Shown here one piece after another: positions 2,611 through 30,328 of a stretch of 64,000 nt of DNA. The DNA lies in the NCBI GenBank assembly GCA_034521495.1, contig JAXHMK010000010.1, positions 806,001 through 870,000 of the forward strand, read 5' to 3'. The notes beneath the pieces were generated by a model, which searched no databases, was not told the origin of the DNA, and saw only the letters and a list, made by a program, of their open reading frames with translations. A program made the position numbers and the translations under genes. This DNA is from Balneolaceae bacterium. Lineage in GTDB: Bacteria; Bacteroidota; Rhodothermia; Balneolales; Balneolaceae. The stretch's first letter is position 1. Every line of letters starts with the position of its first letter.

Positions 2611-2958
2611 AACAATTGCTTTTAATCCAAAATAGAGAAGCCAGGCGATCACAAAGATCATCATCCCGTAAAGCGTCGTGATAGTTGAAACTTTGAGTCC
2701 GCCGGCTAACAACGCCGGAGAAACGGATCCCATCTGCTCTATTGCTGTAAATGCCTGGTACAAGCCCATAAACTGACCAAAGAAACCAAAAACCAATGCA
2801 AATATCCCAATTTCCCGAACCAGGGTTGGGGATGGTGATTTTGAATCATCTCTGCCGGGTTGCAGAAAGATATATCCTGCAGTTGCGATAACAGCAATTA
2901 AAATGATAGTTAGTATTCCCATGAATAGCGGGCCGCCCATATAAAATAGATCAAACAT
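2599..2958 (-). CDS. Small MotA/TolQ/ExbB-type membrane protein
   Basis: A 119-residue protein with three hydrophobic segments (about 8-32, 49-72 and 92-114). The second and third resemble the proton-channel core of MotA/TolQ/ExbB proteins, with the pattern SPALLAGGLKVSTITTLYGM near 79-98 corresponding to the conserved A-L-x-T-x-x-G-L-x-V-A-I-P-type helix. It lacks the large cytoplasmic loop of full-length ExbB/TolQ and is about half their length. No ExbD/TolR or TonB partner is adjacent. A proton-channel role is therefore inferred from fold only, and a structural membrane protein is also possible. It is divergent from the LytTR regulator with 106 bp between start codons. Confidence 0.6.
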   Translation of the reverse strand: MFDLFYMGGPLFMGILTIILIAVIATAGYIFLQPGRDDSKSPSPTLVREIGIFALVFGFFGQFMGLYQAFTAIEQMGSVSPALLAGGLKVSTITTLYGMMIFVIAWLLYFGLKAIVSNR

Positions 2959-3064
2959 AATTTTATCCTGTTTTGTGATTAAGTGTTCACAAGAAATGTA
3001 TCTTTAAAAGGCAGGTTTCAGCAATGTAGAAACACCGTCTAAAGATGTTATTCGTCGATAAAAG

Positions 3065-3874
3065 ATGGCATTCTGCGATAAAATCAGGATTTTTCATCAA
3101 AAACAATGCAGGCAGGTAAACATATACTTATTTTGGATTATGGCCGGGATCATTCTGGTCATTGGCTTTGGAAACACCTATGGAGATTATCTCAATAGTT
3201 TCTACTTCGTCACTTTTCTTCTTCCTGTGGCAATGGCTACCTCCTACTTTTTCAATTACTATTTAGTACCGAACTATTTATTGAATAGAAATTACCTGAG
3301 ATTTTCAATCTACACGATCTATACAATTATCATCTCACTTTACCTGGAGATGGTTGTAGTGACAATTTCCTTCATCGTTCTGGCCAACTATCAGTATGAG
3401 GAATTGAACCCAATAATGACAAATATTTTTGTTTTAGGATTTGCCGTTTACCTGATTGTTTTGATCAAAGCATTTTTCCTTCTTTTCAGGAGAGTAAAAA
3501 ACAACGAATTCAAAGTTCAGCAACTGATGGAAGAAAAAGAAGCGCTGAAAACGGAGTTCATAACGATTCGGGCAGATCGAAAAAATCATCAAATAAAACT
3601 GGATGATATTATCTATCTCGAAAGTCTTAGTGACTATGTAAAACTTCACACATCTGATCAAACACTCACAACCCGGGAGACGATCTCTTCGTTTGAAAAA
3701 ACCCTGCCGGAAACGTTTATCCGGATTCACCGGTCGTATATTGTCAACCAAGAACATGTCAGTAATTTCAATTCAACCTCAGTAGAGATAGGTGATTTAG
3801 AATTGCCGATCAGCCGAACGTATAAATCTGATGCGATTTCCATACTTGAAGGGAAAGACTCAACTATGGCATGA
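3065..3874 (+). CDS. Membrane-bound LytTR-domain transcriptional regulator
   Basis: A 269-residue DNA-binding regulator tethered to the membrane. Four hydrophobic segments (about 21-36, 45-68, 79-106, 118-141) are followed by a short charged linker and a C-terminal LytTR domain (about 165-262). The domain is recognised from DIIYLESLSDYVKLHT, FIRIHRSYIVN and LPISRTYK. There is no receiver domain, so this is not a classical response regulator. Such TM-LytTR proteins are common in Bacteroidota and usually control nearby genes. The divergently transcribed MotA/ExbB-type gene is the obvious candidate target, which is inference. It converges with the symporter gene, leaving 8 bp between stop codons. 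Confidence 0.85.
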   Translation: MAFCDKIRIFHQKQCRQVNIYLFWIMAGIILVIGFGNTYGDYLNSFYFVTFLLPVAMATSYFFNYYLVPNYLLNRNYLRFSIYTIYTIIISLYLEMVVVTISFIVLANYQYEELNPIMTNIFVLGFAVYLIVLIKAFFLLFRRVKNNEFKVQQLMEEKEALKTEFITIRADRKNHQIKLDDIIYLESLSDYVKLHTSDQTLTTRETISSFEKTLPETFIRIHRSYIVNQEHVSNFNSTSVEIGDLELPISRTYKSDAISILEGKDSTMA

Positions 3875-29832: not shown

Positions 29833-30038
29833 TCTTTTGTTATTAAATTTTTGTGTTATCTGAATTTTTTATCACTGATAAAAAAACAATTATTCAAGCT
29901 TTTAAGATAAGGTGATTTCAGAAGCTTTACAGAACTTTTGTGTAAATCACTCTTATCTATTTCTCAAAAAATTTATATCTCGGTCCAAAATCCGATCAGC
30001 CCGATCTTACACAGAAATCTATTGTTGTCTCAACCCAT

Positions 30039-30270
30039 ATCTGACAGTGTGTGAAGACCTGACAGCATTCCCGGTGCTTTTCCGGGGTTCTGATAGCGTC
30101 AGTAACTTTTTAAATAGATGAGTAGAGGGATTTGCATTACTGCCCGTCTGCACGCTGTATGTGCGGGCTGACGGGTTGGGGACACCCATCAGCCGGTAAA
30201 AACAACCGACAGATGGGTATTTCAAAGCCTCCGAGTATATGGCAATTTACAAACCTCAACGCTGTCAGAT
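30039..30270. ncRNA. Candidate multibranched structured RNA or hairpin element
   Basis: This 232-base stretch is closed by a 12-bp stem (30039-30050 with 30259-30270, one G-U). It holds three nested hairpins. The first is CTGAC/GTCAG enclosing CCCGG/CCGGG with loop TGCTTTT (30059-30102). The second is CCCGTC/GACGGG enclosing GCAC/GTGC (30143-30175). The third is ACCCATC/GATGGGT enclosing CGGT/ACCG (30184-30218). It fills most of the 496-bp gap between the VOC gene and an outer-membrane gene and contains no credible ORF. A relative of the first hairpin, with the same loop and compensated stem, lies at 39076-39111. Strand and function are unknown, and no known RNA family is recognised. Confidence 0.5.
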
Positions 30271-30328
30271 ACAGTGTGTGCTGACTGGTATCGACCGATA
30301 CTGCATCACTGAATTGACACTATGCGAG

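What the first reader, a model, noticed from the sequence alone, without database searches (positions are those of the whole stretch)
30039..30270. Compact multibranched fold in a gene-free 496-bp gap
A 12-bp closing stem encloses three consecutive two-tier hairpins over 232 bases. Each hairpin has a paired outer arm and a separate inner stem. Chance arrangement of four such elements in order is unlikely. It looks like an undescribed structured RNA, or a transposase-less relative of an RNA-guided mobile element.
Basis: partly seen in the sequence, partly recalled or inferred. Interest (0 to 1): 0.75.

Follow-up and report, generated by a model that had tools for sequence, protein, structure and literature searches.

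The report
Mobile DNA nested inside mobile DNA
The folded stretch is not one RNA but two small, gene-less jumping-DNA elements, one inserted into the other, each built around a mirrored pair of short palindromes; this is mostly ordinary, with a useful hint about how such palindromes spread.

Summary
The hairpins are real, but they are not one fold. Window 30020-30322 is an IS630-type MITE (a gene-less mobile element) carrying two REP-like palindromes, h1 and h2. A 108-bp IS5-type MITE (30125-30232) sits inside it, flanked by the duplication GAGTA. The inner element has 17 copies in this genome. Outer copies without it exist, six of them intact at about 150 bp, and the window minus the insert aligns with empty relatives. 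Full IS elements with matching ends occur in related genomes: IS630 in L326, IS5 in L306 and L299. The 12-bp closing stem is seen only in this copy; 29 homologues pair about as random sequence does. So neither the single structured RNA nor the RNA-guided element is supported. The palindromes themselves change in compensatory ways. In four related genomes h1/h2-type palindromes bracket a RAYT-like gene, broken in one, so h1/h2 are REPs riding in a MITE. Another IS5-type MITE here carries an inverted pair of CGTC-tagged REPs, whose mover was left open in print (PMC3733652). New member of a known kind.

The parts
30020..30322 (+). Outer element: IS630-type MITE, TA at both ends, interrupted by the inner element (303 bp; 190 bp without the insert and one duplication)
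   Evidence: Ends located. First 16 bases match the ends of the IS630 in L326 at 11-12 of 16 (window) and 12-14 of 16 (intact own-genome copy). Six intact own-genome copies of about 150 bp.
   Evidence: 51 distinct homologues, 7 of 15 pairs with changes on both sides, 0 of 500 shuffles as high
30257..30290 (+). h2, inverted partner palindrome, diverged in this copy
   Evidence: 33 distinct homologues, 3 of 14 pairs with changes on both sides, 9 of 500 shuffles as high
30120..30124 (.). Left target duplication GAGTA of the inner element
30125..30232 (+). Inner element: IS5-type MITE, 108 bp, ends GAGGGATTTGCA and (rc) GGAGGCTTTGAA
   Evidence: 17 own-genome copies, the window included, at 88-100%. 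IS5-family elements with such ends: L306, L299.
30233..30237 (.). Right target duplication GAGTA
30142..30176 (+).
30184..30218 (-).
30039..30050 (+). Left arm of the 'closing stem', specific to this copy
30259..30270 (+). Right arm of the 'closing stem', really the 5' half of h2

Best explanation
Two non-autonomous DNA transposons are nested. First, an IS630-type MITE carrying an inverted pair of REP palindromes (h1, h2) inserted at a TA site just beyond the end of the 446-aa ORF. It aged: its left end and h2 are diverged. Then a 108-bp IS5-type MITE, itself carrying an inverted pair of another REP-like palindrome, inserted into the spacer between h1 and h2 and duplicated GAGTA. Shown here: the ends, the duplication, the multiple copies, homologous empty sites, matching autonomous elements in related genomes, and a RAYT-like gene bracketed by h1/h2-type palindromes in four related genomes. 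Inferred: that IS5- and IS630-family transposases supplied in trans made these two moves (no intact source was found in this genome), and that the palindromes are passengers with no shared RNA fold.
For: The block 30124-30232 recurs in 16 other own-genome places as a unit, and the outer halves are joined directly elsewhere. Exact 5-bp duplication in 11 of 16 inner copies measured, the window included; the 17th, L353, shows ACTTA on both sides; also 21 of 33 other elements with such ends. Window minus insert aligns across the junction with L181 and L217. IS5-family transposases between matching ends: L306, L299 (NF033581). IS630 transposase between matching ends: 1201 bp in L326 (NF033545). Intact own outer copy against the IS630 left end: 27 of 32, where 20,000 random window positions reach at most 20.
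Against: No intact transposase bounded by either set of ends was found in this genome: 17 DDE_Tnp_1 and 8 DDE_3 matches are not; only a broken IS5 remnant is present (L308). The assembly is 97.4% complete in 22 contigs. The window's own outer ends match the IS630 at only 17-20 of 32, no better than the best random position; they are identified through the better-preserved copies. L326's transposase lies in two frames. Five of 16 inner copies lack an exact duplication (three have 4 of 5, two have none). No transposition was observed.
Confidence: 0.93

Rival explanations
1. A single structured non-coding RNA of 232 nt that folds as the reader drew it and acts as an RNA.
For: Folds better than shuffles on both strands. 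Individual hairpins keep pairing through double changes.
Against: Closing stem 13 of 13 here, but mean 7.6 and maximum 9 in 29 homologues, against a mean of 6.9 and 95th percentile of 9 for random sequence. Hairpins 2 and 3 belong to a different repeat. No Rfam match. Promoter-like sites 2 against 1.9 expected, terminator-like sites 0.
Confidence: 0.02
2. A transposase-less relative of an RNA-guided element (IS200/IS605-OMEGA or IS110 bridge RNA).
For: Mobile, gene-free, with imperfect hairpins; Y1-type genes exist in this genome (13 matches), and RAYT-like genes lie between h1/h2-type palindromes in four relatives.
Against: Terminal inverted repeats with a 5-bp duplication and TA ends fit DDE transposases. 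The partner genes in relatives are RAYT-like, not TnpB, IscB or IS110 recombinases. No search for a guide RNA beyond Rfam was made.
Confidence: 0.02
3. REPIN/BIME only: h1 and h2 were placed here by a RAYT (Y1) transposase and the terminal repeats are incidental.
For: h1 and rc(h2) share one plan; in relatives they occur singly, in inverted pairs or in tandem. RAYT-like genes are bracketed by h1/h2-type palindromes in L203, L219 and L218, and a broken one in L224.
Against: Six own-genome copies share IS630-like ends beyond the palindromes, and the inner copies share exact ends with distinct 5-bp duplications. This probably holds for the origin of h1/h2, not for the last moves.
Confidence: 0.05

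Closest known systems
IS5-family MITEs
   Same: No ORF, IS5-type terminal repeats, short target duplication, many near-identical copies
   Different: The interior is an inverted pair of REP-like palindromes; no intact IS source found in this genome
IS630-family MITEs (TA target)
   Same: TA at both ends; ends alike to a 1201-bp IS630 element in a same-genus genome
   Different: Carries h1/h2, which also occur without these ends across the genus
REP / BIME / REPIN palindromes with RAYT
   Same: Short imperfect palindromes, inverted pairs, compensatory changes; RAYT-like gene between them in four relatives
   Different: Here packaged between IS630-type ends; no GTAG or CGTC tag as defined in PMC3733652; the RAYT-like proteins score below NCBIfam's cut-off (43-48.5 against 80 bits)
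QMITE2 of Coxiella burnetii (PMC5896051; passages seen, some from the abstract)
   Same: A MITE that contains a REP and is itself a target for another mobile element
   Different: There a GTAG REP and IS1111; here untagged palindromes and a second MITE of an IS5 type

Membership tests
IS5-family MITE (inner) | Terminal inverted repeats shared with an IS5-family element | tested here: met
   Inner ends against L306 and L299 ends: 11-14 of 16, except one L306 end at 5-7 of 16 (degenerate or mis-bounded); transposases are IS5 family
IS5-family MITE (inner) | Target-site duplication | tested here: met
   GAGTA on both sides in the window; 11 of 16 copies exact
IS5-family MITE (inner) | Multiple dispersed copies, no coding capacity | tested here: met
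   17 copies; no ORF of 80 aa or more in the gap
IS5-family MITE (inner) | Autonomous partner in the same genome (not required of a MITE) | tested here: not met
   Only a broken remnant, L308
IS630-family MITE (outer) | Ends shared with an IS630-family element, TA target | tested here: met
   27 of 32 for an intact own copy; 17-20 of 32 for the window copy alone; TA at 30020-30021 and 30321-30322
REP/BIME palindromes (cargo h1/h2) | Short palindromes in many places, frequently inverted dimers | tested here: met
   Match in 22 of 28 genus genomes, this one included; 31 inverted h1-h2 pairs in the fetched set, the window's included
REP/BIME palindromes (cargo h1/h2) | GTAG or CGTC unpaired tag at one end | tested here: not met
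   No unpaired 5' tag in h1/h2 or A/B; h1 ends in CGTC, but on the 3' side and mostly paired
REP/BIME palindromes (cargo h1/h2) | RAYT gene flanked by the palindromes | tested here: met
   In four related genomes: L203, L219, L218 intact, L224 broken; 53-54% identical proteins. Not seen at the 13 own-genome Y1 loci; the own genome was not searched with this subtype
Single structured RNA | Whole fold conserved in homologues | tested here: not met
Single structured RNA | Transcript of defined length | not testable with these tools
   no expression data available

The most novel reading that the evidence does not exclude
REP palindromes change vehicle. Inverted REP pairs are captured between the ends of DDE-transposase elements (IS5, IS630) and then spread as MITEs, whether their own enzyme exists elsewhere (h1/h2, with a RAYT-like gene in relatives) or is unknown (CGTC-tagged REPs). 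REP families and MITEs in these bacteria would be states of one cycle: capture, spread as a MITE, decay of the ends, free palindromes. The 129-bp IS5-type MITE with a CGTC dimer and the window's two MITEs are three cases in one genome. The 41-bp palindrome reported around H. neapolitanus CGTC dimers (PMC3733652, section 7) reads to my eye like IS5-type ends, which I could not test.
Probability: 0.4. Interest if true: 0.55.

Novelty: new member of a known kind. Interest (0 to 1): 0.35.

Why it matters
It removes a candidate RNA that would look convincing by energy and by hairpin conservation, and it shows how nested palindromic MITEs imitate a multibranched RNA. It also offers a testable answer to a question left open in PMC3733652, namely what moves REPs that lack a dedicated transposase: capture by IS-type ends.

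Tried and rejected
Rfam over the window: nothing at gathering scores. DDE_Tnp_1 genes of the own genome as source: 17 matches, none bounded by either set of ends (L243 and L248 have a separate small MITE nearby, L254 and L256 one weak one-sided match). DDE_3: 7 of 8 own-genome matches looked at, the eighth (L331); none bounded. A 4-bp duplication for the inner element was my first reading; one search showed 5 bp with corrected boundaries. I first concluded that no Y1 gene lies near h1/h2. That profile was made from four seeds of one subtype, two of them identical, and was blind to another; a second profile reversed the conclusion. The short ~140-bp elements in G019 with outer-type ends carry another interior. 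No match: the G008 IS end in plasmids; the region in phages and plasmids. Papers: Balneolaceae + 'miniature inverted-repeat' 0; CGTC + REP + MITE + IS5 0; REP + MITE + IS5 family + target duplication 0. Searches gave listings only, apart from PMC3733652, PMC5896051 and PMC12306157 (passages; nothing on MITEs in the last). The library is open-access only.

Limits: 40 of 48 candidates were scored, so copy counts are lower bounds; the same holds for three genomes. h1/h2 homologues came from BLAST, so they lean towards similar sequence. For the pair counts I kept 51 of 75 h1 and 33 of 62 h2 hits (full enough and distinct). For h2, 'further pair types' were reached by 45 of 500 shuffles. The 29 homologues of the closing-stem test are not independent; six are near-identical own-genome copies. 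The 16 palindromes were picked by a pattern that already asks for near-complementary outer arms, so mainly the inner pairs inform; there 54 of 500 shuffles reach the number of double-changed pairs and 353 of 500 the number of pair types.

Full report
What is there. The 496-bp gap lies between two minus-strand ORFs, a 446-aa ORF without a Pfam match at E 0.001 and a glyoxalase-fold gene, next to grpE and dnaJ.

Two repeats, not one. A search of the window's own genome (4.57 Mb, 22 contigs) splits the region. Query 135-243 (window 30124-30232) recurs in 16 other places as a block of its own. The parts on either side recur elsewhere with query position 112 next to 261, in copies that lack the block. 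Reading the copies gives the inner element as 30125-30232, 108 bp, flanked by GAGTA on both sides. Of 16 inner copies that the script could bound, 11 have an exact 5-bp duplication, three have 4 of 5, and two have none; the seventeenth shows ACTTA on both sides (L353). Among 33 other elements with the same kind of ends in the fetched loci, 21 have an exact 5-bp duplication. My first reading was 4 bp; the boundaries were then corrected.

The outer element is 30020-30322. Six intact own-genome copies are about 150 bp long. Removing the insert and one GAGTA from the window leaves a spacer that aligns through the junction with spacers of relatives such as L181 and L217.

Who moves them. Ends like those of the inner element bound full-length elements in related genomes: L306 (1270 bp, 338-aa transposase, in another genus of the family) and L299 (1284 bp, 340 aa, same genus), both IS5 family by NCBIfam NF033581 and Pfam DDE_Tnp_1. 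One of the two L306 ends matches poorly. Ends like those of the outer element bound a 1201-bp IS630-family element in a same-genus genome (L326; NF033545). That transposase lies in two frames, and two partial copies lie at contig starts in G012. An intact own-genome outer copy agrees with the IS630 left end at 27 of 32 bases, where 20,000 random window positions reach at most 20. The window copy is diverged and reaches only 17-20, so it is identified through the better-preserved copies. In the own genome no DDE_Tnp_1 (17) or DDE_3 (8) match is bounded by either kind of end, and a broken IS5 remnant remains (L308). The transposase source is therefore inferred.

Closing stem: 13 of 13 in the window, G-T pairs allowed; in 29 homologues with both arms, best of seven registers, mean 7.6 and maximum 9; random sequence gives a mean of 6.9 with a 95th percentile of 9. 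Of four similar outer copies shown, two read CTGTCAG where the window has CTGACAG in the left arm, and the others read TTGTCAG and CTGTAAG, so the stem comes from a change in this copy within a motif repeated all through the element. Hairpins 2 and 3 are absent from the empty outer copies.

The palindromes themselves are conserved. h1: 51 distinct sequences, 93.2% of cells paired, 7 of 15 pairs with changes on both sides, 0 of 500 shuffles as high. h2: 33 sequences, 92.9% paired, 3 of 14 pairs with double changes, 9 of 500 shuffles as high. h1 and the reverse complement of h2 share one plan: three base pairs, a bulged base, seven base pairs, then an inner stem and loop. In the fetched loci they are found singly, in inverted pairs with spacers of about 6-78 nt (one less than the distances printed; the window's is 156), and in tandem. 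Matches occur in 22 of 28 genomes of the genus, this one included. An exact 44-base stretch of h1 was found in named records only in Balneolaceae bacterium GEM2.Bin42 (6 loci; records near the window's genome may be left out there).

h1/h2 have a RAYT-like partner in relatives. A first profile found no Y1 gene beside h1/h2. A second, made from the other Y1 subtype of this genome (L128-L132), found RAYT-like genes between h1/h2-type palindromes in L203 (G007; gene 1157-1795, palindromes at 1092-1125, 1943-1988 and 2020-2053), L219 (G003; gene 1228-1950, palindromes at 1108-1153, 1211-1244 and 1990-2023) and L218 (G018; gene 2910-3554, palindromes at 2690-2723 and 3625-3658). In L219 the ORF as listed overlaps the end of one palindrome, because its start codon is not settled. 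A profile of these three adds a gene broken into three pieces between two h2 in L224 (G011). The second and third intact proteins are 53-54% identical to the first, and all three share an invariant HFH motif. They match NCBIfam REP_Tyr_transpos at E 4e-11 to 8e-13, but below its curated cut-off, and Pfam Y1_Tnp only weakly in one. These are 4 places among 85 loci with h1/h2 in the set; all were fetched for their palindromes, so the telling point is a palindrome on both sides. The 13 Y1 loci of the own genome carry no h1/h2, but that search used Pfam Y1_Tnp, which hardly sees this subtype, so absence in the own genome is not shown.

The two palindromes of the inner element are inverted relatives of each other with a mismatch at one fixed place in 15 of 16 sequences. 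They also occur alone in this genome (L340, L345, L347 for A; L343 and L348 for B, read by eye) and in two relatives (L350, L351), or otherwise spaced (L341, L346). Across 16 sequences five pairs change on both sides (54 of 500 shuffles as high), while the number of cells with double changes and the covariation score exceed all shuffles, with the selection caveat given under Tried and rejected. One own-genome Y1 gene (L126, IS200-like) is flanked on both sides by a palindrome of similar plan, and another (L125) has one on one side; the other 11 of 13 show none of that plan close by.

Reading. These are REP palindrome pairs packaged between the ends of DDE-transposase elements. A third case in the same genome is an IS5-type MITE of 129 bp. 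Its ends give 118 + 121 pattern hits at up to two mismatches (16 + 9 for the reversed control; the inner family's ends are counted in as well). Its interior is CGTCATCCTGAACTTGATTCAGGATCTCC and an inverted relative, which fits the CGTC-tagged REP described in PMC3733652 (abstract, passages, sections 7 and 14 read). [quoted passage not shown] neapolitanus all CGTC-1 dimers sit inside a 41-bp palindrome. The consensus printed there resembles IS5-type ends to my eye; I could not test it. A REP inside a MITE has a precedent in QMITE2 of Coxiella (PMC5896051, passages read), so the packaging is not new in kind.

What remains open. Whether the own genome still holds a RAYT for h1/h2; whether any of this is transcribed; in which direction the traffic between MITEs and free palindromes runs.

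Noticed in passing
own genome, e.g. L061, L064, L075 (G000:C2:57536, C4:164784, C9:6129): A 129-bp IS5-type MITE in many copies whose interior is an inverted pair of CGTC-tagged REPs; 5-bp duplications are common.
   Followed up: partly
L203:1092-2053, L219:1108-2023, L218:2690-3658, L224:195-1059: RAYT-like genes (the last one broken) lying between h1/h2-type palindromes in four related genomes, a divergent subtype below NCBIfam's cut-off.
   Followed up: partly
L126:1324-2055 (G000:C9, about 672100-672830): A Y1 transposase gene flanked on both sides by CCGTCTGCTTTAGCTGACGG, similar in plan to palindrome A of the inner MITE; an inner MITE copy lies about 900 bp away.
   Followed up: partly
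L211 (G024:C18:6700-10333) and L200 (G004:C317): Tandem arrays of h1-containing units with periods of about 173 and 165 bp.
   Followed up: no
L132:1842-1989: An inverted pair of other palindromes (TTCCGAAGGAGACCTTCGGAA and a relative) beside a RAYT-like gene.
   Followed up: no
L257, L259 (G019:C36, C101): A ~140-bp MITE with outer-type ends but a different interior; 56 exact end-pattern hits in G019.
   Followed up: no
G000:C4:177416-178189: An inner-type MITE, an outer-type MITE and a 129-bp MITE lie within 800 bp, so such elements can cluster in gaps.
   Followed up: no
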